Positions 1-22,522 of a stretch of 64,000 nt of DNA are shown one piece after another. A program made the translations under genes and the position numbers. Source of the stretch: a candidate division SR1 bacterium (GTDB lineage: Bacteria > Patescibacteriota > Gracilibacteria > Absconditabacterales > Absconditicoccaceae); assembly GCA_026397515.1 (NCBI GenBank), contig JAPLUU010000005.1, forward strand, positions 1-64,000, read 5' to 3'. The notes below the pieces were generated by a model, which saw only the letters and a list, made by a program, of their open reading frames with translations, was not told the origin of the DNA and searched no databases. Numbering within the stretch: the first letter of the stretch is position 1; each line of letters opens with the position of its first letter.

Positions 1-435
1 CTTTCAAATTATCTAACCTACATCGACGGTAATATCAAAAACATAGAAAATCCCGTACTTAAACAGCAAGGTGAAGCATATTATAGATTCCTTCAAAATA
101 TCGATATGCAACAATGATTAATCTTCAACAAAGAATTTTATATCATTGTTCCTTATTACGAAAGCGAACAAGACAAGGGACAAATCCAAAGGTCACGATG
201 GGGAAAATTACTCGATGTACTCAACGCCAAAGATAGTGTAGAAAAAGTTGTTACGAGATACAGACAGTTTCTCAAAGGAAGAAATTGATTAGATACAAGA
301 GTACATCTTATTATCGATGGCCTCAATGGTATGGGAATCGGTGCAGAAAAAATACCTACATCAGATATCATAAGTCTTATTTTTCGTTGTTATAATCCAT
401 TGCTTCATAGTTCTCAAGCACCACTTATTAAATAA
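1..435 (+). CDS. TraC-like conjugation protein, 3' end
   Basis: Open from the left edge to TAA at 433; the 5' end lies outside. The fragment (144 aa) has two in-frame UGA (Gly) codons. It contains FNKEFYIIVPYYE, a later VVTRYRQFLKG segment and the C-terminal pattern LNGMGIGAEKIPTSDIISL followed by FRCYNPL. This order resembles the small TraC-like proteins found beside VirB4 ATPases in CPR conjugation or type IV secretion clusters, where they are thought to be cytoplasmic or membrane-associated partners of the ATPase. The family is inferred from memory of these motifs, not from a search. It is followed at once by a strong hairpin terminator. Confidence 0.55.
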
Positions 436-456
436 ATAGAGAAAATATAATACAAT

Positions 457-484
457 AAAAATCCGCGATTAAGCGGATTTTTTT
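457..484. terminator. Bidirectional rho-independent terminator
   Basis: Stem AAATCCGC / GCGGATTT with a GATTAA loop, flanked by an A-run on the left and a T-run on the right. It can stop both the TraC-like gene (plus) and the DUF1846 gene (minus), which converge here. Confidence 0.85.
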
Positions 485-502
485 ATGTTTTTTGTTTGAT
501 TA

Positions 503-1612
503 TTATAGCTTCATATCTAAATCATATTTTTTATCTTCACAATATTTTTTAGCTTTTGCATACAACTCATCACATTTTGCTGTTCGTTCTTGTTTGCCTT
601 CTTTTCTATCAACCTGTTCCTGATACCATACTTTTCTTCTTTCGATTTCATGAAGTGAAGCAATACTAACTATCTCATCACTAGTGATAGCCATACCTGC
701 ACAGCTGATTCCCATGTCCGTAGGGGATTGATATTTGACCATGTAATTTTTGTGATTGACAATTTTTTTTGCAATATCCATAACGATTTCAAATGCTTCC
801 ATATCTCTATTATAATTTACAGAATCTTGTCCGTATGCCTTTTTATGATATGTATCCATCATATTATAATCACCGATATCTACCGTTGCAGCTTCGTATG
901 CTAAATTCACAGGATGTTCAAGTGCGATATTCCAGATAGGAAATGTTTCATATTTTGCATATCCGGATTTTACATCGATCTGATGATCGAGATAAATCTG
1001 TCCGAGACAGGTAGACATTTTTCCGCTACTGGAAGCGGCTCCGGTGACCAATATCAAATTCTTCGTCAATGGAATATGATCATCATTACCAAATCCATCA
1101 TCACTGAGAATAGTGTCCGTGTTGTGAGGATATCAGGTTATCTTGTATCTTTCCCGTACTCTGTATTGTTTTCTTTGAAAATCTTTTTCAAATTCAAGAA
1201 TTACATCAAACATATTCCCGACATCAATATTATTGATCACAATATGTGGTTTGATTCAAATATTTTTTTCTATATTTCTAATAAGCTGATAAACATACTC
1301 TTTATAATCGATATTCTGATTGCTCAATTGTCTGTTGGATAAGATGTCGTTTGCATTTACACAAAACAAAATTTCAGCCTGACCCTTCAATGATTCAAAT
1401 ATTTTTTTCTTTGATTCTGGATCAAATCCTGGCAAAACTCTTGCTGCATGGGTATCATTCATAAATTTTCCACCAATCTCCAAATATAATCTTCAACCAC
1501 CAAAATTAGCGATTCTATCGAGAATTTTTTCCTTTTGAAGTCTGATATACTTGTTACCATCAAATCCATGTTTTTTATAGTTGATGATATCAGTTGAATT
1601 GATCACGTTCAT
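503..1612 (-). CDS. DUF1846 (UPF0371) family protein, short form
   Basis: 369 aa with ATG at 1612 and TAA at 503. The N-terminal part has LYLEIGGKFMNDTHAARVLP, and the middle has the P-loop-like TKNLILVTGAASSSGKMSTC, then GYAKYETFPIWN, HPVNLAYEAATVDIGDYNMM and VNYNRD. These are hallmarks of the DUF1846/UPF0371 family, whose biochemical role I do not know. Family members are usually near 490-500 aa. This one ends soon after the SPTDMG motif with a Lys/Glu-rich tail and so lacks the usual C-terminal domain of about 130 aa. It is monocistronic, with a 256-base leader upstream and the shared terminator downstream. Confidence 0.85.
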
Positions 1613-4253: not shown

Positions 4254-7244
4254 TTATTTCACTAGTTTTCCATCTTCTAACCTGATTACATCATCAGCAA
4301 ACTTCAAAATATTTTTATCATGCTCAATCATCAGGATAGTATCTCATTTATTCAAAAATTCTTTGATTACTTTCAATAATTTTACGATATCTTCCGAATG
4401 AAGTCCAACCGTAGGTTCATCCAAGAAGTACATCGTATGTCCTTTATACGATTTCAACAAATGTTTTACTAATTTCAATCTCTGACTTTCTCCACCGGAA
4501 AGCATATGGGCTGGTTGTCCCATCCTCAAATATCCGAGTCATATATCCACCATCAGTTGTAAATCTTCACGGATATGATCGATTTCGGAAAAGAATTCTA
4601 AAGCATCGTCGATATACATTCCTAATACCTCGGAGATAGTCTTTCCTCTTCGTTTGATTGCCAAGATTTCTGTCTTATATCTTTTCCCCTGACAGAGTTC
4701 ACATGGTATGTACGTATCAGGAAGAAATTGTAATTCCACTTTTTTATATCCATAGCCATCACAGGCAGGACACGCTCATTTATTGGAATTAAAACTGAAA
4801 TAGCTGGCATTGAAACCGAGATATTTACTATCAGTTGTTCCTGCATACAACTGTCTGATATGGTCAAACGTACCGATAAATGTAGAAGGACATGATCTTG
4901 GAGTTTTTCCGATACTTGTCTGATCTACATAAATAGTATTTTTGATTTCTTCGTGGCCGATGATAGTTTCTACAGCCAAGTCCTTATGAAATTCTTGGAG
5001 TGCTAAACTTTCATAGTGTTCATATTTTTCTTTGTTCATCACCGGAGCAGCAAGGATATCTTGTCGATTCCATCATTGTTTCAAAAGTTCCAATCTTATA
5101 AAACTTTGGATAAATTTTTGTTTTTCATTCAAAAATTTAAATAGCGTGGTATACATGAGCGTCGTTTTTCCAGCACCAGAAGGTCAAGTTATGATAGTAA
5201 ATGTTCCGAGTCTGATATTCACATCAACATCCTTAAGATTATGTTTCGATGCTTTTTTTATCTTCACCACATTGTTGCTTGGTTTATGTTCAAAATCAAT
5301 AGATACTTTTTTCTTGCCGAGAATATACTGCGCAGTCAAGGTATCAGATTTTAAAAAGTCATCATAGGTACCGTTAAACATCAGGTTACCACCAAAGTCT
5401 CCAGCACCTGGTCAAATCTCAACCACCCAATCAGATTCCTTGATAAATTCTTCGTTATGTTCCACAACGATAATAGTATTTCCCATTTCTCTCAATTTTT
5501 TAATCGCCACAATCGCTCTTTTTATCTCTCTATCATCGAGTCCAATCGTCGGTTCATCGAGTACATAGATGATTCCTGTCAATTTATTTCCCAACTGTTT
5601 AGCGAGTCTTAGTCTCTGAATTTCTCATCATGATAGGGTATCTATTCCTCTATGAAGACTCAGATATCCAAGTCATAATTCCTGAATAGTTTTTGCTCTA
5701 TCATTGAGTGGATTGATAATTCTTTGTATCAATGTCTGATCTTTACTCGCATGATCTTTATACAAATCTACGAAGCTAATCATATCATTGAGCGGCATTC
5801 TTTGGAGGTCGGCTATATTATATTTACCTGATTGAATTTTTTCTTTTGCTTTACTTGTGAACGTCAAAAACACATTCAGACTTTCTTTCTTAAGTTTTGT
5901 TCCTCCACATTCATTACAATCTTTCATATCGAGCATCGCTTGAAAATCTACGGTCAAAAGACCCTTTGCATATTGGTCTTTGATAATTTCTTCGATACCT
6001 TTATAGGTCATACTGATAAATTTACCACCATAATTTACTCTCAATAATTCCTCATCACCAAAGAGTACGACATGTTGAAATCGTTCGGGTAAATCTTTCC
6101 AAAGTTTGTCAGGATCGATGCTATATTTTTGTGCTAACTTCAAAAGCAATGACTGTCCAAGATTAGAATCTCTTCGTGGTAAAATAGCTTTCATATACGG
6201 ACTGATAGGATCCAACATTTTATCGAAATCTATCTGCAAGATTTCACCGATACCATGACACGTTGAACATGCTCATTCCTGTCTGTTTGGTGAAAAATGC
6301 TGAGGGGTAAATTCAGGATAGGTAATATTACAATCCGGACAATACATCTTATCCGTGAACCATTGGATTTCATTTTTCGCTTTAGCTTTTTTACTTCAGG
6401 TTTCGGTGATATAGATTCCAAACTTTTTAAACTCTGCTAATATTTTGATAATATCTTCTTTCAATCTTCATAATTTTTCTGCTTCTACCGTGACACGATC
6501 ATAAATCCCGTAGGTAGTGATAGGAAAATATTCAGCAGGTACATTCGGCGTCTCGAGGTAGAAATATTCAATAGGTTCCAGAGTATCTTTTTTCTTTATC
6601 TTCGCTCAGTTTTCATCTTTTACTGTCGTATCAGCGACGAGCAAATAACGGGTAAATCCTTTTCATTTTTCTACTTTATTCCTATTTTTTTTGACAAAAT
6701 CTGTGAGGTCTTCTTTCTTTTCAAAGCGACCAGATTCTTGCAAAAGATATATTTTCTGACCCATGTAACTGGTTTGAATCTCAGTCATTACCTGCTCGAT
6801 GGTCTGTGGTTTGATCTCCTTTCCACAACTATAACAATAACTATCACCGAGTTTTGCATACAACAATCTCAAGTAATCATCAATCTCTGTAAGCGTTCCT
6901 ACCGAGCTTCTTGAGTTACCCGCTTTCTTATTCTGTTCAATCGCAATCGCAGGGGAGAGTCCGCTACAATGATCGATTTCTGGTCTTTCTCATAAATTGA
7001 AAAATTGTCTCAAATAACTCGAAAGTGATTCGATATATCTATATTGTCCTTCTTTATAAATAGTGTCGAAGGCGAGAGAAGACTTACCAGAACCAGAAAC
7101 TCAGGTGATCGTAATCAGCTTATTTTTAGGAATTTCGATATCGATATTTCTGAGATTGTGAGTTTTAATTCACTGGAAAGTAATCTTGTTCTCCAGACTT
7201 CCAAGATTTGCAATCATATGTTTTTCTACAGATTTTTTTGCCAT
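4254..7244 (-). CDS. uvrA: UvrABC system protein A
   Basis: 996 aa, slightly longer than the usual 940. UvrA is the damage-recognition ABC ATPase of nucleotide excision repair. Features in order: Walker [12 protein letters not shown] near residue 48; [16 protein letters not shown]; zinc-finger cysteines ([16 protein letters not shown]); first ABC signature and Walker B with [14 protein letters not shown] near residue 550; second Walker region; CPAC/CELC zinc finger; second signature [11 protein letters not shown] near 915; and [11 protein letters not shown]. Many UGA codons fall on glycines of these motifs. The start at 7244 lies 4 bases after the upstream gene, so translation is probably coupled. 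No uvrB or uvrC is in the window. Confidence 0.97.
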
Positions 7245-9573: not shown

Positions 9574-10410
9574 TTAATAGGTATTCTTGAGTTCCCAGTC
9601 TAACACTTTCAAAAATTTAGGTACCAATCAATATCTCAATGCTCCCGTAAAGTCAGGTCCATACCCATCAAATACATAATGTGGATTATTTGGTGTAGCA
9701 ACATATCAGCTTGCATCAGTTCCGGTAATCGTTCCGCCATTATATAATGCTGCATGGTTTACAAGTCATGTCCATGTAAATCAGGTGTACGTCAATTTGA
9801 TTCAGAGTTTGGTTTTATATTGTGTGTGTTTTGCTTTTGAAAAGTCGATGAAGTCTTGGATGGCTTTCAAAAAGGTAGCTTCCGTAATCTGTCCGGTTCC
9901 ATAATCTTTACTGATGATTTGGAAAGGACCATCACCATTGACTGGCATATAATAGCCACAATTTACCTCTCTATATCGCGTCGCAATCGTTAACGCTGTA
10001 GGGAAATTATTTGCAAAACTGATAGTATCCATCGTGTTATACCAACCGGTGCAGGTATCAGTTGTTGTGATATTTTGGCTGAAACCACTGATATATTGAT
10101 CGACAAAATCTTGTTTAGTTGTTTTGGAAAGTATCTTCACTTTCGCTTTTTCCGTATTCATCTCTGTGATTAGATAGAGTCATAATTCGTTCATATAATA
10201 ATTCACCTGTTCGTGGTTAGCAAACTGTTCTTGGAGTGTTTTCATCTGTGCGTAAAAATCTCGTTTACCTTTCATATCACCCGTAGTAATGGTATCGAGC
10301 TGCGTTTTTAAAAGTCTGACCTGAACAAGATCTTGGCTTGTTGGTGTATACGCAAAAACGCTTCATAACAAAAGCGTACCTAGTATAAGGGTAAAAATTT
10401 TTTTCATCAT
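9574..10410 (-). CDS. Secreted lysozyme/lytic transglycosylase-like protein
   Basis: 278 aa. A signal peptide (KKIFTLILGTLLLGSVFAYT) is followed by a helical region with NHEQVNYYMNELG. The lysozyme-like core then has PTALTIATRYREVNCGYYMP and NGDGPFQI, which resembles the transglycosylase pattern in which a helix carries the catalytic Glu and a G.fQI strand follows. The Glu of RYREVNC is the likely acid. The C-terminal part has ALYNGGTITG and YVFDGYGPDF. I infer peptidoglycan cleavage in the envelope. It is the third gene after two VirB6/TrbL-like genes, as expected for a hydrolase that helps a secretion channel cross the wall. A specific family is not assigned. Confidence 0.7.
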
Positions 10411-10528
10411 AATGTGTACATGTAAAAAAGACAGATGTCCGTCAAAGCGGAAGTCCATTTTTCAATATAACATTCTCTAAAAGTGTTGCAAGGAGAAAAA
10501 TAGTATTTATGTATAATAGAGTGGTGAT

Positions 10529-12607
10529 TTATTTCTGTGTGCTAGGATAGAAGGTCATAGCTGCAAGTTCAGCATAGTTGGTAGGTAGTGTTTTCTTTTT
10601 TGTAGATGTTGATCAGTTCATAGCATTGTAGAATGCCCTAATGTTACCAGTTTCTTTAAAATATACTTTCCATTCATCTTCTGTAGGAGTGGTTCCTGCC
10701 ATATCCAGTTGTGTAAATCAATCTGGTGTCCTAGATTTTAATACGTATGCGAGTGCTTTACTTCGTCTAGCATCATTCAGTGATACTCATCCACTTCTTT
10801 CTTTTGCCAACTTGTTCGATTCGGCAAAGAAAGACGCACCTTTATCATTCGTGGTAGCTAATTTTTCCAATCATATATAATCATCATCACCCCAACTTTC
10901 CTGTTCTCAGAAAAAATTAGTACCTATATAATTATCAATTGCTTCTTGATTAGTTTTAAATCCTCATGTTTTGGCATTATATTTACCAAATTCACCCCCT
11001 GCATTCACACCAAATCAACCATATACTTTAGCTTTATTTTTTGTCATCAGTGATTTAGCCCCTGTATATCATATTCCTCACGGGAAGACAGGCATAGTTT
11101 TAGCAGCATCTTCTGCGGTTTTGATGAGTTTTTCCATAGTTTCTCCAATCGTTCATCCTCCCAGAGTGAGAGAAAGTTTGATAAATTGTCGCATAAGGAA
11201 GAGACACAATAACATCATAATAAGATTGCTGAAGAAGTTCTGTACTTCTCCTTTAGCATTTGTTCCAATCACGTCGGCACCCAAGATATCTTTTTGACTG
11301 ACGGACATACTAGTTATTCATGCGACATCGAGTACAGACGTATCAGCTCAACTTTTGGTCAATGAGACTCCATTGAGATTATTTTCTCGGGTAGCTCACG
11401 ATCATGTGATACTCGTCTGTATACTTACGATAACTATCAGCATCAATGACATACCAGCTACAAAGATAACCGGTTTAAAAACTGCACTGATGAGATTGGT
11501 GGTACTAAATATTTTTGCAAGTCATCACGATCATTCTCCCATTTTTTTGTTGAATACTTTTATCAAAATCAGAAATGGTGATCAGATGATAAAGATTCGG
11601 AGAAGTCCTACTCTCATGATATTAGCTATCAGCATCAAGAGCAATCCGACCGTAAACAATAGTAAGAAAAATAATCTCAGAGCAAAAGCTAAAGTAAGGG
11701 GAACAACCTCTTTTGATGTGTCTCATAGCGTCAGATAATTTTGGAAACCAAATACTGCCATACCAAGATAAATAAACGGTCAACTGACAGAGCTTTGGTT
11801 GGGTAAAATATTTTCTAGGGTAGGAGAGAGTAATGGGCTAGTTTCAGGTATTGTCTTAAACATATTTTCAAATCCAGTTCCTTGATAATTGAGATCCATA
11901 ATACCTCTATTCTTTTTTATATTGATCAGACTATTATCAATATTGGTTTTTAGTGTGGCATTATTGCTGAGAAAAGACATAGGAAAAGCACCAATACCAG
12001 CTGTCGCGATAGTAGATATATCTATGACCGCTCACATGAGAAACCGACTTGCTTGGATAAGTATTCCTGCTACCAAGGTATTGGTAATCACTTTTTTTAC
12101 ATCCAAAGCTTCTTTGCCGACAAGTCACTTAATGATAGAAACCAGCACAAGTCCTGCCAACGCAAAGTTAGCAAAATTTTTCATAATATTTCGGATTTTC
12201 CAGAGATAGATATCCATATGGATAAATGCACCGTAGACAAAATCATTTGTCATAAGTTTTCCCGCGAGGATAGAAAGGATAATCCATCATCGTGAACAGA
12301 GAGCAAGAAGTGTTTGTAAAAATTCTTTGGTATTTTTAAGTGTTACATCTTCTGCTGCGCTTTGTGCATAGGTAGGAAGGATAAAGAAAAATCAAATAAT
12401 ACAAATCAGACCAACGATTTTGATCGTAGTCCCCCGATCTGCTTTAGAAAATTTAAACTTCTTCCCCCGAGAAGTCGTTGTTGAAGTTCAAGTATCTAAA
12501 GTCGTCGGCATAAGTTCGACATCATGAAAACCCTCAGAAGGATTCGCCTTTTCCTTGTGTCTCTCTATAGGACTGTGTAAGATATTGAAGATTTTCTTTA
12601 TACTCAT
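10529..12607 (-). CDS. VirB6/TrbL-like polytopic membrane protein
   Basis: 692 aa, ATG at 12607, TAA at 10529. A polar N-terminus is followed by a hydrophobic segment ending in FFFILPTYAQSA. Later helices include WIILSILAGKLM, FANFALAGLVLVSIIKGL and LVAGILIQASRFLMGAVIDI. A long soluble segment then precedes further membrane helices and a polar tail. It shares two motifs with the next gene upstream: LW..RN.MKNFANF and LIQASRFLM.A.IDISTIAT. Large proteins of this kind in CPR genomes accompany VirB4/TraC-like genes and are taken as inner-membrane channel parts of a type IV secretion-like machine. The plus-strand ORFs here are shadows without UGA-aware support. Confidence 0.7.
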
Positions 12608-12628
12608 AGAATGTAGATAGGGTAAAAG

Positions 12629-15112
12629 TTATTTAATAGTTGTTGCTGGAGTTGTTGCTGCTACTGGATCTGTAGATGTATAAACACCACTATTATTAGT
12701 TATGGTAATTTGTTTTCATACTCATACAGGAACTACACATGTCTTTTGTGTAGGGTTTAGTTTGAAGTAAGAATTCAAGAGCTCTTTGTTGGCAGCAGTA
12801 TCTAATACTACTTGTACCTGTGCTGCTGTTGTCATATCATCAGTTATGCCTTTTTTGAGCGCAGCATCTAAAGCTGTCTTAGCGGCTGTTGCAGCAATTT
12901 TTGCCGTAGCTGTTGTATACCATGCTGTTCCTAATTTATTTCATGATGCATCATCTACTGCTATTGCAAGCGCTTTAGTTTTTTCGTCATCAAGTTTTAA
13001 TCCAGCTATTGTAGCTGCGATGTTGTCTGTACTACCACTAATTACTGTACCGACATCGTCTGCTTTTACTCATGCATTGGTCAATCACGCGATTATGCTA
13101 GCTTTATTTGAGTCAGCTGTAATAAGTGTTCATGCTAAGGTTGAATCTATCGTTGTAGGTGGAGTCTTTTCTTCTCCAAATCACATATAATCACTTACTA
13201 TCTTATTTTGTTCAGTATCTTGATTGTTTTTCCATTTATCTGGAATATTACCAATACCTTTTTGTAGATTACTGATACCAACCCCTCATCATCATCATGG
13301 TAACTGTATGATAGGCATAGTTTTGAAAACATTTTCTCCAAAATCTTGTACTTTTTTACCAACTCATTCTCGGAGTGCATTAGCTTTGAGTGCGGCGAAA
13401 AAAATCATTCGCATAAGTCCTATGGCAAAGAAGTTTATCATAAGCCAAGAAAATCGATCCATAGCTCATCACCAAGAAAGTTTAGAAAACTCTAAAGAAG
13501 CAATGGAGTCGAAAACGATACCATCGTTTCAAGGAGTAACTTCATTAGCAGGGAGTTTCTGTACGCCCAGTGTTTGGTGGATAGCCGCAGTACTATCACT
13601 CGAAGTAAATCCATTGACTAGCGCTGTCATAAAAATTAGTGAAATACTGAGGGCTGCTACGGTCACTACGGGAGCGAAGATAATTCATATAACACCGGGT
13701 ACACTCAGATACTCATCTAATCATTTTATTTTTACAAAGTCTTTGAAGCTTGCTTTGAGGATGATAAATGGCGAAGCAACGATATACAGCCGAAGGACTC
13801 ATACCCTTGCAATAAGTACCAAAGCCAATGCTATAAGTGGGAAAAATAGCGCTATGGCGACCAGTGATTTGATGATAAAGACACCGGAAGTTCCTGCAGC
13901 TGATGTAATATTAGTATCTGTAAGTTGTGCAAAATTAAGTAATGAAGAATAGATGGTAACTAGTGGTCAGACAAATCATTTAGATTTTTGGATAACGGTA
14001 GCTATACTCAAAGTTTCCGATCCACCAAAGATAGCATTACCTGTACTGAAGCCAGCACTTCATGATTCAAGATAGACAAGTTTCCCCGTCACACAACCCA
14101 AATTTTGCCGTCATGTTACATTCGTCAAAGCATTCATAGCTTTTTTATATTCTGCAGGAGAACTGGTAGTATATCATGTTGATCAAGCAGGTTCATGTAA
14201 ACAACTACTCAAGTTGGTAATAAAATCTTCTTCTGGCCATGTCACCAACTGATTTCCATAGAGTGTACAGACTTCCAAGCCAGCGTATGCACCACTAATC
14301 GCTGCAAGCTTTGCTGAATTTTTATAGTCTGTATCACCATATTCCCTTCAGATGATGTATGAGCGAGCTACCTTACAAGGTGATATTTTTAATATTTGAT
14401 CTTTGTTTTTTAAGGTATTCCATATTTGGAACTCTTGTCCTCCTGCATTAGTAATATCAAATTTGTTGAGATCCAATTTACTATTTACGGGGAGAATTTT
14501 TTGATCACCGATGGTGGTATTTTTTAAAACACTGAGCGGAAGTCATCCAACAGCATAGGTTGCTATAGTAGAGATATCGATCGTCGCAGCCATAAGAAAC
14601 CGACTCGCTTGGATAAGTACTCCAGCGATCAATGTCGTCTTTATAATACCGAGAGGTGATTTTTCATCTTTTGCTGATCATGCTCAACTATTGGAAAATA
14701 TACTTTTTATAATGGCAAAAAGCACCATAAATCACAGCGTGAAGTTGGCAAAGTTTTTCATCATATTTCGAAACTGCCAGAGCGGTGCATCGAGATGAAA
14801 GACCGAAGCGTAGACGAGGGTATTGTCCAACGCAAGTCCTGCAATGACCAAGAGCGGCCAGAGGAGGAGATATATTAATTTAAGGACCATATTGAGCGTC
14901 TGCCATATACTTGTGGTACTCGTAGTTCAAGCAATTCAAGAATCTGTACCATTTCCTGTAACAGTTGGATCAGCAGCATGAACTTGTGTACCTACACTTA
15001 CGGTAATAGCTCAGTCTGTCCCAACATATCCATTCAAAAAAACTCATGATAATAACATAACAAGAACGAATCAAAGTATTTTTTTGATAAGACTGGATTT
15101 CAATAATCTCAT
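12629..15112 (-). CDS. VirB6/TrbL-like polytopic membrane protein, paralogue
   Basis: 827 aa, ATG at 15112, TAA at 12629, 21 bases before the paralogue. N-terminal signal/TM segment (KKILGFVLVMLLSGVFLNGY), then IWQTLNMVLKLIYLLLWPLL, the shared motif PLWQFRNMMKNFANFTLGF, and LIAGVLIQASRFLMAATID. A large loop with scattered cysteines follows, then more helices and an Ala/Thr-rich C-terminal region ending in ATTIK. It is the first gene of the minus-strand run, so the promoter should lie in the 300-base gap up to 15412. The tandem arrangement suggests gene duplication. The role in secretion is inferred from topology and family resemblance only. Confidence 0.7.
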
Positions 15113-19824: not shown

Positions 19825-21795
19825 TTATGTGGTTTGAAATGTTTCTTTATTTACTTTTTTAGTTTCGGCTATGTATTCTCATCAGAGAAAAGTTTCTGCA
19901 TCAGAGTAATTTAGTTCATTTACTATTTTATCAGCTTCATATACTGCTTCACCATATGTATTACCTTCTTGTAATCCTTTCAATAGTGTTATAGAATAAA
20001 TAGTCGTTCATCGTGATGGTGTATTTGGTAGATAATTCTTGGTTTGTGTAAAGATATAGAGATTTTTGAGATCTTTTGATTCCTTGGTAAGATCTATTAA
20101 TCATCAGCCGTAACATCAGATGGTAGATATATAGAATTTACAGTCCGGATATTCCTTACTCAATTGTATGATAATATCAGCGGTCAGCGGTTTTTCAAAT
20201 GCCAAATGTGTTGGCGTACCATGGGAATAGAGGTCAAAAAAGAAATTTTTTTGTGCAGGATAGTTGTTTTTTATAGTAGATCTCATGACAGTTTCTGGAT
20301 CTCCTGTTATTTCAGGATTTGAGGTTTTTATCTTGGGATAGTTTTTTTCTAATTCCTGTGCAATCGCTTCAGAAAATCCCAAAATTCATCATACTAATCA
20401 CATTCCATCATTATTTTGAAATATTCTCGTATATTGTATGGGTTCATCTTTGGGTAAATCAAAATTTTTGAGTATATTATTTTTTTCTTTAGTAGTATTT
20501 TTTTCTTTTTGTTCTATCTCTTCGACTATACTCTGGATATCTTCATGTTCTATTTTTTCTATAAGAAAATGTGGTTCTAAAAGTATGCTTCATGTTCAAT
20601 AAGTTACTTTCACTCGATATTCAGCTGTTTTTTCTAAAATTAGTTTCGTTTTATATTTATTATCCTTGAAGGTAAGATCGATAGAATATTTATTTTTTTT
20701 GAATTGATATGATTTATTTAGTTCAAGTGCTTGTGCTGTAGAATTGTACTCGGAACAGACTTTATCAATCTGTTTATAGAACTCATCATTTTCTAAGGAA
20801 TTTTTCGTATTGATGTCTTTCTCACTTAGATTTCATTGAATTTCTTTTTTTATATCATTTAGTGTAATGGGGGTATCTATTATTTTTCAAATATCATGCA
20901 ATAACGGCATGTATTTTTCATTCTCTCATAAATTTTGAGATAGTTCAATAATATAGAACACATATTGTGATAGAATATCCCTGTCTTTATAATCTGTCTT
21001 TATATCTTTTTTTTTGCTTTCTAAGAGTTTTTGTACTATAGCTATAGTATCCTCTGTATTTTTTTTACATACATCGCTTATTTTTCAGTCATTGATGAAT
21101 TTTTGTGTTTCGAGACATTGTTTAATGTAATATATGTAGTCCCCACTCACACCGAATGATATTCCATATTTATCGATTTCTTTTTGTATGTGCTGATTGG
21201 TAGTACTGATATAGTTTGCCAGCACGGTATTACATGAAATTTTATCTTCAACCGATATATTCTGCATTATGGTGAGCAATTTTCCGAATATCTCTGCATT
21301 GCTGATATCTGATCAGCTCAAATCGAATCCATCCTTATTATATTTTGAATTATCCTTTGAAAAATAATCTAATCGTAATACGAGATTTTTGTTGATTATT
21401 TCTCCATATTTATTTGTATCTATTTGGATATTATCTACACCGTTTCCTTGCTCATATTTTTGTGTATTGAGCAGAATATAAAAAATATTTATAAAATCTA
21501 CTTGCTCTTTTGTATTGTTCAATTCATTTTGTATGGTAGATAGTTTGTTTACCAAAAAATCCTTCCGTTTCTGCAATCATTCACGCACTTTAGTTTGATC
21601 TTCTATTCATAAGTCTTTGTATAATAGTCTATTGCTTTGGATAATTATAGAAAAATTTGATATATTTTCCCCAGGAGTTTCTAAAACTTTTATATTTGCA
21701 GTGGTTTCTTTATCTTTGAAATCTTCACTTAATGGTATTGGTTCTTTTTTTATGATAGGCGTATCATTATTTTCTTTTTCGAAAACATCAACCAT
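19825..21795 (-). CDS. Hypothetical protein with a clan CD (caspase-like) C-terminal domain
   Basis: 656 aa read through many UGA codons, ATG at 21795. Residues 1-450 are polar and helical, with repeated Lys/Asn/Ile-rich stretches and no recognised family. The C-terminal 200 residues carry FFFDLYSHGTPTHLAF (His525) and KFYISTIGCYGGGLIDL (Cys561). A strand then SHG, and a later strand then C-[YF]-GGG, are the layout of caspase/gingipain-like cysteine peptidases. The region before it has NNDGMGLVGGILGFSEAIA. No signal peptide is visible. It lies 22 bases downstream of rsmE in the same direction. The peptidase assignment is inference from the two motifs. Confidence 0.65.
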
Positions 21796-21817
21796 AGGTG
21801 AATAAAAAAAGTAAAGT

Positions 21818-22522
21818 TTAAAACATGTGATTGTTTTTCAAAATCCATCCTCCGATAATTGCTGCAGTTTCAGTTCTCAATATGGTATCACCGAGTCCAT
21901 AAATATCATATTTTTTTCATTCGAAGGTCTGGTAGTCTCTAGGAGTCAGTCCACCTTCCGGTCAAACTAATCCGTAGATCTGATCAGATTTTTGTATGGT
22001 TCATTCACCTGTTTTTTTATCAAATATCACTAAGGGAGTATCGCCTATCAATGTTTTGGGACTTGTCGTAAAGATCAATTTCGGCACGGCCCGTCCTCGT
22101 GATTGTTCGACAGCTTCTTTGATTATTTTCTGTAATCTTTCTTCTTTTTTGGGATTCCATTCTTTGAGAACTGATCTTTCTGAGGGCCAAAATATAATCT
22201 GATCTAGACCACATTCGGTCAGTTTTTGGACAATCAATTCTATTTTATCTCGTTTGTTTGGCATCGCGATAATCATACTTTTTTTCTCATTCGTTCATGT
22301 TTGGGTCTGCTCAGAAACTATCGTTCATTCAACCTGTTTGTTATCCCAACGATCTACACGGACTTCATATCTTATTTTTATGCTTTCATTTTCGGGACTT
22401 TGGATCCAGATACTATCTCCTATGCTTGTTCTGAGGACTTTTCTGAGTTGCGACAAAAGCTCGATATCAGCGATAACAATATTTTTATCTTTTTTTGTAT
22501 ATTCCGTGACAAAAAGTTGCAT
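21818..22522 (-). CDS. rsmE: 16S rRNA (uracil-1498-N3)-methyltransferase
   Basis: 234 aa. The start chosen is ATG 22522 (MQLFVTEYTKKDKN), since RsmE begins with a short strand leading into the PUA-like domain; codons before it are unconserved. Conserved parts are LRKVLRTSIGDSIWI, AMPNKRDKIELIVQKLTECG, WPSERSV, EAVEQSRGRAVPKL, then IYGLVGPEGGLTPRDY and LGDTILRTETAAI. The last two form the SPOUT-knot SAM site. It is the first gene of a two-gene minus-strand unit, divergent from the DUF212 gene. Confidence 0.95.

What the first reader, a model, noticed from the sequence alone, without database searches (positions are those of the whole stretch)
9574..15112. Tandem VirB6/TrbL-like paralogues coupled to a secreted lysozyme-like protein
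Two large polytopic proteins share LW..RN.MKNFANF and LIQASRFLM motifs and precede a signal-peptide-bearing protein with a transglycosylase-like Glu motif. A TraC-like fragment lies at the left edge. Together they suggest a minimal type IV secretion or DNA-uptake machine, split in the genome.
Basis: partly seen in the sequence, partly recalled or inferred. Interest (0 to 1): 0.6.

Follow-up and report, generated by a model that had tools for sequence, protein, structure and literature searches.

The report
Divergent VirB6 pair in Absconditabacteria
Two neighbouring membrane-protein genes in an Absconditabacteria (SR1) genome are very divergent, duplicated copies of VirB6, a core part of the type IV secretion machine, followed by a probable cell-wall-cutting enzyme; they look like the VirB6 that a 2025 survey could not find in these bacteria.

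Summary
Read with code 25 (TGA=Gly), the minus strand carries A (12629-15112), B (10529-12607) and a small secreted protein, LYS (9574-10410). A and B are paralogues (48-50% identity over 110 aa). Curated TrbL/VirB6 models miss them. Profile-profile alignment links B, A and their class-wide homologues to Patescibacteria proteins that do carry the TrbL/VirB6 domain (probability 98.6, 97.1, 99.8%), above polytopic, reversed and block-shuffled controls. A medium-confidence model of B matches R388 TrwI/VirB6 best (Z 9.6, 257 of 272 residues). A VirB4 ATPase lies 12 kb right of the window. So the genome has a monoderm-type T4SS in scattered loci. VirB6 homologues were reported absent from class Gracilibacteria (PMC12102498); these fit that gap. 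One duplication at the base of the family made A and B; other families mostly have one copy. LYS resembles lytic transglycosylases (Glu169, GDGPFQI, LYNG), on weaker evidence. The substrate is unknown; delivery into, or pilus contact with, a prey bacterium is most likely; DNA uptake has no support here.

The parts
12629..15112 (-). Gene A: extended VirB6-like polytopic membrane protein, 827 aa from the ATG at 15112 (839 aa from an upstream TTG); about 7 hydrophobic segments, variable hydrophilic C-terminal part
10529..12607 (-). Gene B: VirB6-like paralogue of A, 692 aa, about 8 hydrophobic segments; starts 21 bases after the stop codon of A
9574..10410 (-). LYS: signal-peptide-bearing protein with SLT-like motifs (E169, NGDGPFQI, ALYNGG; residue numbers from the ATG at 10473), candidate VirB1-role peptidoglycan-cutting enzyme
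1..435 (+). C-terminal 144 aa of a TrsD-like protein (relative of the N-terminal part of VirB4), cut by the contig end; a full-length copy lies at G000:C16:70-774 beside two pilin genes, and the two contig ends match over 504 bp at 95.4%

Best explanation
A and B are two highly diverged, paralogous VirB6 subunits of a monoderm-type (MPF_FATA-like) type IV secretion system in an Absconditabacteria (SR1) cell. Most likely both sit in the cytoplasmic membrane and form, together or in alternation, the VirB6 base from which a VirB2-type pilus or channel is built, driven by the VirB4 ATPase encoded 12 kb right of the window and its separately encoded TrsD-like N-terminal partner. LYS is exported and most likely opens peptidoglycan locally (the VirB1 role). 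The genes are scattered over at least two regions. Shown here: homology to VirB6/TrbL proteins, paralogy, gene order, and presence of VirB4, TrsD and pilins in the same genome. Inferred: that they work as one machine, the oligomer, the enzyme activity of LYS, and the purpose (contact with or delivery into prey or host bacteria).
For: Profile-profile: B family against 22 Patescibacteria proteins found with PF04610 gives probability 98.6, score 138 over 319 columns; A 97.1/102/134 columns; 18 class homologues 99.8/261/339 columns. Controls: 17 polytopic sets at most 8.2/31; reversed alignments at most score 38; 20 block-shuffles each at most 47 (B), 61 (A), 58 (class). Fold: R388 TrwI/VirB6 entries take ranks 1, 2 and 4 of 382 aligned chains, Z 9.6, 9.4, 7.9, and Foldseek ranks 3, 9, 10 and 25. 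Context: VirB4 over the NF045971 cut-off (367.6 against 325 bits); T4SS_pilin genes; TrsD relative; in 4 of 35 f1 loci TrsD-pilin-pilin stands divergently beside CL17-A-B-LYS; in 4 f10 loci the homologue lies next to a VirD4/TrwB-like ATPase. Distribution: A profile in 168 of 192 class genomes. Tree: A and B each one clade.
Against: No curated model (PF04610 or any Pfam or NCBIfam family) reaches A or B directly. The model of B is of medium confidence (pLDDT 59.7, pTM 0.41), Foldseek E-values are 1 to 5, and Z under about 13 can be a common arrangement for helical proteins. A alone is weaker: one sequence gives 62%, and one block-shuffle of the A family reached 86.8% (best shuffled score 61 against 102). 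VirB4 and A/B are about 61 kb apart. G033 (one contig, 97% complete) has VirB4, pilins and TrsD but no A, B or LYS; a UvrA-like gene found beside the set in a congener was also not found there, so a missing stretch may explain it. G001, G009, G010 and G045, all incomplete, have VirB4 but no A match.
Confidence: 0.82

Rival explanations
1. A and B are VirB6-derived proteins taken over for a job apart from the VirB4 machine, for example a stand-alone channel or envelope-anchored complex working with LYS in envelope remodelling.
For: VirB4 lies in another region, about 61 kb away on the contig; no VirB4 match lies in any of the 35 f1 stretches or the 20 class stretches around A/B homologues; G033 has VirB4 without A/B/LYS.
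Against: In 4 of 35 f1 loci the TrsD-pilin-pilin set stands beside the A/B genes, and in the window's genome TrsD and pilins sit on a contig whose end matches the window's left end; in four f10 loci the homologue lies by a VirD4-like ATPase.
Confidence: 0.1
2. A DNA-import machine that brings prey DNA into the cell.
For: The own genome has VirD4/HerA-like ATPases, with weak matches to CedD among others; PMC8080830 (passages read) proposes DNA uptake in the relative Vampirococcus through ComEC and type IV pili.
Against: That proposal needs ComEC and type IV pili, not a T4SS. A VirB2/VirB4/VirB6 set is the usual export and contact layout (general knowledge). No DNA-uptake gene was recognised next to A/B among the neighbours scanned. 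PMC12857230 (passages) reports that T4SS essentiality in a Saccharibacterium is not due to ComEC.
Confidence: 0.05
3. Unrelated polytopic membrane proteins that only resemble VirB6 through hydrophobic make-up.
For: No curated family match; the structural match alone would be compatible with a generic helical arrangement (note).
Against: Best scores are about 1.7 to 4.5 times the best block-shuffled score of the same family, and further above reversed alignments and 17 polytopic controls; three VirB6 entries lead an independent structural ranking.
Confidence: 0.03

Closest known systems
VirB6 / TrbL superfamily (R388 TrwI; PF04610 proteins of other Patescibacteria)
   Same: Polytopic membrane protein with a homologous core of about 320-340 columns for B and the class homologues, best structural match, same genome as VirB4, pilins and TrsD
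   Different: Not recognised by PF04610; 690-840 aa with long variable C-terminal parts ('extended' size); present as an ancient tandem pair
Patescibacteria T4SS (PMC12102498; PMC10633639)
   Same: VirB4 of the CD1110 type, TrsD relative, VirB2-like pilins
   Different: That survey found VirB6 absent in class Gracilibacteria and TrsD there away from virB4; here divergent VirB6-like genes are proposed, at a second locus with TrsD and pilins. The paper cites Absconditicoccus and Vampirococcus under Gracilibacteria in one sentence and places Vampirococcus in class JAEDAM01 in the next, so the class boundary is unclear
Rickettsiales VirB6 paralogues (four virB6 paralogues in Anaplasma; PMC3556328, passages read)
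   Same: Clustered, size-diverse, extended VirB6 paralogues in one system
   Different: Gram-negative system with outer-membrane parts; four paralogues against two; virB6 genes clustered with virB3 and virB4
GH23 lytic transglycosylases / VirB1 (PF01464)
   Same: Conserved Glu in a protein with a signal-peptide-like start, GxxQI-like and YNG motifs; alignment register puts E169 on the SLT glutamate
   Different: No SLT match in Pfam among the families shown for 29 homologues; profile-profile probability only 17%; helical N-terminal half and two invariant cysteines

Membership tests
VirB6/TrbL superfamily | Homologous core with VirB6/TrbL proteins (profile-profile, with controls) | tested here: met
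VirB6/TrbL superfamily | Direct match to the curated TrbL model PF04610 | tested here: not met
   no match in the own genome; so not filed as a PF04610 member but as a divergent branch of the superfamily
VirB6/TrbL superfamily | Polytopic membrane protein with five or more hydrophobic segments | tested here: met
   7 (A) and 8 (B) by a simple hydropathy count
VirB6/TrbL superfamily | VirB6 fold | tested here: inconclusive
   best rows are VirB6, Z 9.6, from a pLDDT 59.7 model; below the tool's own caution level for helical proteins
VirB6/TrbL superfamily | Pentameric base in contact with VirB4 and pilin | not testable with these tools
   no multimer prediction or biochemistry available
Type IV secretion system | VirB4 ATPase in the genome | tested here: met
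   367 bits, cut-off 325
Type IV secretion system | VirB4 within about 20 genes of the other parts | tested here: not met
   about 61 kb from A/B on the same contig; PMC12102498 notes dispersed systems as exceptions
Type IV secretion system | VirB2-like pilins | tested here: met
   own-genome L232 1345-1848, 37.5 bits against 26.6; the second pilin is below cut-off (21.0)
Type IV secretion system | Coupling protein (VirD4) | tested here: inconclusive
   two VirD4-like ATPases on C19, both below every cut-off
Conjugation system | Relaxase | not tested
   no genome search left
TrsD (NF041427) | Curated model over cut-off | tested here: not met
   29-35 bits against 200; but 47-53 bits to residues 91-240 of the VirB4 model NF045975
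SLT lytic transglycosylase (PF01464, VirB1) | Pfam SLT match | tested here: not met
   none for the window protein, and SLT not among the 25 of 38 families shown for the 29 members
SLT lytic transglycosylase (PF01464, VirB1) | Catalytic Glu followed by GLMQ-like and AYN-like motifs (motif definition recalled) | tested here: inconclusive
   E169, GDGPFQI and LYNG conserved; profile alignment 17% against at most 2.2% in 40 controls

The most novel reading that the evidence does not exclude
The Absconditabacteria T4SS uses an obligate mixed VirB6 base made of two paralogues fixed since the origin of the lineage, with VirB4 run as two polypeptides (a TrsD-like N-terminal part plus the ATPase), pilins supplied both singly and as a multi-pilin fusion protein, and a dedicated secreted lysin: a reworked secretion pilus of predatory epibionts that opens the prey envelope.
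Probability: 0.22. Interest if true: 0.8.

Novelty: new variant of a known kind. Interest (0 to 1): 0.6.

Why it matters
The known cultured Absconditabacteria kill the bacteria they live on (PMC11452946, passages), but a survey of Patescibacteria T4SS found no VirB6 in class Gracilibacteria and guessed extreme divergence (PMC12102498). A class-wide VirB6-like family (168 of 192 genomes) would fill that gap, supply a search profile for it, and name the gene pair to test in Absconditicoccus or Vampirococcus co-cultures. It also gives a case outside Rickettsiales of clustered VirB6 paralogues kept over deep time.

Tried and rejected
Direct family scans of A and B (Pfam, NCBIfam) gave nothing, and a PDB sequence search with the B profile gave only chance-level matches. 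A PDB search with the LYS profile caught only coiled-coil-like chains through its N-terminal half. LYS against Phage_lysozyme2 gave nothing. A single-sequence structure of LYS was too poor to use (pLDDT 41); I had meant to give it an alignment and spent the job by mistake. TrsD against my own VirB4 alignment by hhalign failed (0.3%); the VirB4/TrsD link therefore rests on NCBIfam and on PMC12102498. No relative of A or LYS was found in viral contigs (81 pattern stretches; 44; none confirmed), so a phage origin was dropped; those scans back-translate peptides, and I do not know that TGA glycines are covered. DNA uptake was considered and left as a rival. The G033 exception was followed up and is unresolved.

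Rows dropped before counts: 2 of the 24 PF04610 loci (L181, L192), because my density test called them table 25 although their PF04610 frames had no stops inside; L142 and L147 were left out of the class alignment (18 of 20 loci used), and L136, L141 and L146 also out of the tree (15 used). Of the 17 control sets 13 were single sequences, and two of those give the same result as another (S5 and S3, S6 and S2), so they are probably the same proteins. The SLT alignment used 18 of 20 fetched loci. Synteny was read in 35 loci out of the 44 f1 genomes with an A match.

Full report
What is there. The window is the first 64,000 bases of contig C11 (85,956 bp) of a 1.21-Mb, 23-contig genome. Named relatives of gene A come from Candidatus Absconditabacteria / SR1, plus records titled only 'uncultured bacterium' or Patescibacteria and one titled Peribacteria. 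Reading frames are broken under table 11 and long under table 25, TGA=Gly. On the minus strand lie A (839 aa from a TTG, 827 from the ATG at 15112), B (692 aa) and LYS (299 aa listed; the aligned homologues begin near the ATG at 10410). A and B are 21 bases apart, and B and the listed LYS start are 55 bases apart.

A and B are paralogues. BLASTP gives 48-50% identity over 110 aa (E about 1e-24); the family profiles align over 601 columns. In 35 loci of family f1 that I read (of 44 f1 genomes with an A match among 49 searched), A is directly followed by B in 34; the exception is a 4.5-kb contig of G031 that holds only B and LYS. LYS is directly downstream in 17, 2 kb away in 1, and not in the stretch in 17. 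LYS itself matches in 42 of 49 f1 genomes and 44 of 118 overall.

They are VirB6-like. No curated family hits them. PF04610 (TrbL/VirB6) matches 55 of 239 genomes of the phylum, and every one of the 55 listed is 'same phylum', none same class; this agrees with PMC12102498, whose section on gene repertoire (read in full) says VirB6 homologues are absent in class Gracilibacteria, 'suggesting extreme sequence divergence'. I took 22 of the 24 best PF04610 proteins and compared alignments by hhalign: B family 98.6% (score 138, 319 columns), A family 97.1% (102, 134 columns), 18 single-copy class homologues 99.8% (261, 339 columns); 17 polytopic control sets gave at most 8.2% and score 31. Reversed alignments gave at most 14.5% and score 38; 20 block-shuffles of each gave at most score 47, 61 and 58, with probabilities up to 51, 87 and 82%. 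So the B and class results stand clear by score; A stands less clear alone but is a paralogue of B. The B window sequence alone gives 96%, A alone 62%.

Structure. AlphaFold2 on 14 B homologues gave a medium-confidence model (pLDDT 59.7, pTM 0.41). Foldseek has no significant hit, but VirB6 chains of the R388 system come at ranks 3, 9, 10 and 25 with E 1 to 5. VIA-align of 382 of those chains puts R388 TrwI/VirB6 at ranks 1 (Z 9.6, rmsd 5.4, 257 of 272 residues), 2 (9.4) and 4 (7.9); rank 3 is a designed helical repeat at 8.5. Since Z under about 13 can be common for helical proteins, I treat this as support, not proof.

The rest of the machine. One VirB4-type ATPase lies at C11:75,652-77,703 (L085 11652-13703), with PF19044 at 100 bits and NF045971 at 367.6 bits against a cut-off of 325. 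Next to it are a polytopic protein of unknown family (CL15) and a pilin-repeat protein: its G013 orthologue has three T4SS_pilin stretches, and the own copy matches the Mbov_0395 pilin model just over cut-off (40.8 against 40, two stretches). The left-edge ORF is the C-terminal 144 aa of a 233-aa protein whose full-length relatives match the TrsD model (29-35 bits, below its cut-off of 200) and residues 91-240 of an 894-residue VirB4 model (47-53 bits), while the genome's own VirB4 covers residues 261-893 of the same model: together they look like a VirB4 in two pieces. A full TrsD copy with two pilin genes and CL17 sits at the end of contig C16, and that end matches the first 504 bases of the window at 95.4%, most simply an assembly break. 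Two VirD4/HerA-like ATPases on C19 are below all cut-offs. Relaxase and PrgI were not tested.

Gene order elsewhere. In G022, G037, G039 and G028 (4 of 35) a run TrsD-pilin-pilin faces CL17-A-B-LYS. In four f10 genomes (L134, L135, L144, L145) the single-copy homologue lies next to a VirD4/TrwB-like ATPase. Of the neighbours that I scanned in other families, only one in L141 was T4SS-like (a pilin, just under both cut-offs); most neighbours were not scanned.

History. With the A profile, 168 of 192 class genomes match. In a 56-protein tree, A (with G013's third copy) and B form two supported groups (100/99 and 99/96) within one f1 group; the 15 single-copy proteins lie outside, and G101 has its own separate pair. 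The root is by midpoint and long branches are many, so details inside the groups are unsure.

LYS. 29 homologues keep E169, two cysteines (C141, C172), G182-F184-Q185-I186 and L243-Y244-N245. Against an alignment of Patescibacteria SLT domains the C-terminal half aligns in a register that puts E169 on the SLT glutamate and GDGPFQI on GLMQI, with probability 17% and score 27.5; 40 control proteins reach at most 2.2% and 21. Pfam gives no SLT among the families shown for the 29 members. The own genome also has two ordinary SLT matches over cut-off. A transglycosylase-like VirB1 role is my inference, about 60% likely.

How it most likely works. In R388 VirB6 makes a pentameric base on which the pilus is built, and larger 'extended' VirB6 proteins are known (PMC12857230, passages read). 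In a Saccharibacterium the T4SS is essential for life on its host, with pilins and no recognised coupling protein or relaxase (PMC10633639, passages). Cultured Absconditabacteria kill their hosts (PMC11452946, passages). I therefore propose a contact or delivery pilus towards prey cells, with A and B as its base and LYS clearing peptidoglycan. The substrate is unknown, and DNA uptake is not supported by anything I found.

Against. G033, a one-contig genome, has VirB4, TrsD, pilins and CL17 but no A, B or LYS; a UvrA-like gene that neighbours the set in congener G026 was not found either (a search without a positive control), so a lost or missing stretch is possible. Four incomplete genomes have VirB4 without A.

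Novelty. Searches of the held papers for Absconditabacteria or SR1 bacteria with type IV secretion, Gracilibacteria with VirB6, Absconditicoccus and Vampirococcus with secretion, and candidate phyla radiation with VirB6 and tandem listed no report, among the listings and passages I read, of VirB6 in these bacteria; the text search of the Vampirococcus genome paper found no 'VirB'. VirB6 paralogue clusters are known in Rickettsiales. Hence: a new variant of a known kind.

Noticed in passing
window 19825-21954 (-): 709-aa protein with no Pfam match at E 0.01; by eye its C-terminal part has an HG...C(Y)GGG pattern that recalls caspase-like (clan CD) peptidases (recalled, not tested).
   Followed up: no
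window 1-504 and G000:C16:1-504: Two contig ends of the same MAG match at 95.4% over 504 bp, so the assembly seems to break inside the TrsD gene, probably from strain variation.
   Followed up: partly
L085 7895-10590; L234 5974-8058; L070 5654-6586: A pilin-repeat protein next to VirB4, in some genomes with a long cysteine-rich N-terminal part; the G013 copy has three T4SS_pilin stretches.
   Followed up: partly
L232 2032-3159; L073 7166-8242: CL17, a membrane protein of unknown family that stands between the pilin set and gene A in several genomes.
   Followed up: partly
L154 1173-4190: VirD4-like ATPase whose C-terminal end matches ribosomal protein S1 / PNPase RNA-binding models.
   Followed up: no
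L137 7270-17987; L138 4298-13221: In standard-code families the A/B homologue sits in an operon-like run with a small one-helix protein and very large soluble proteins; those that were scanned had no convincing Pfam match.
   Followed up: no
window 4254-7244 (-): UvrA-like ATPase (named by recall; no family scan) with strong matches in six of the other fetched f1 stretches; half of the G026 copy was not found in G033.
   Followed up: partly
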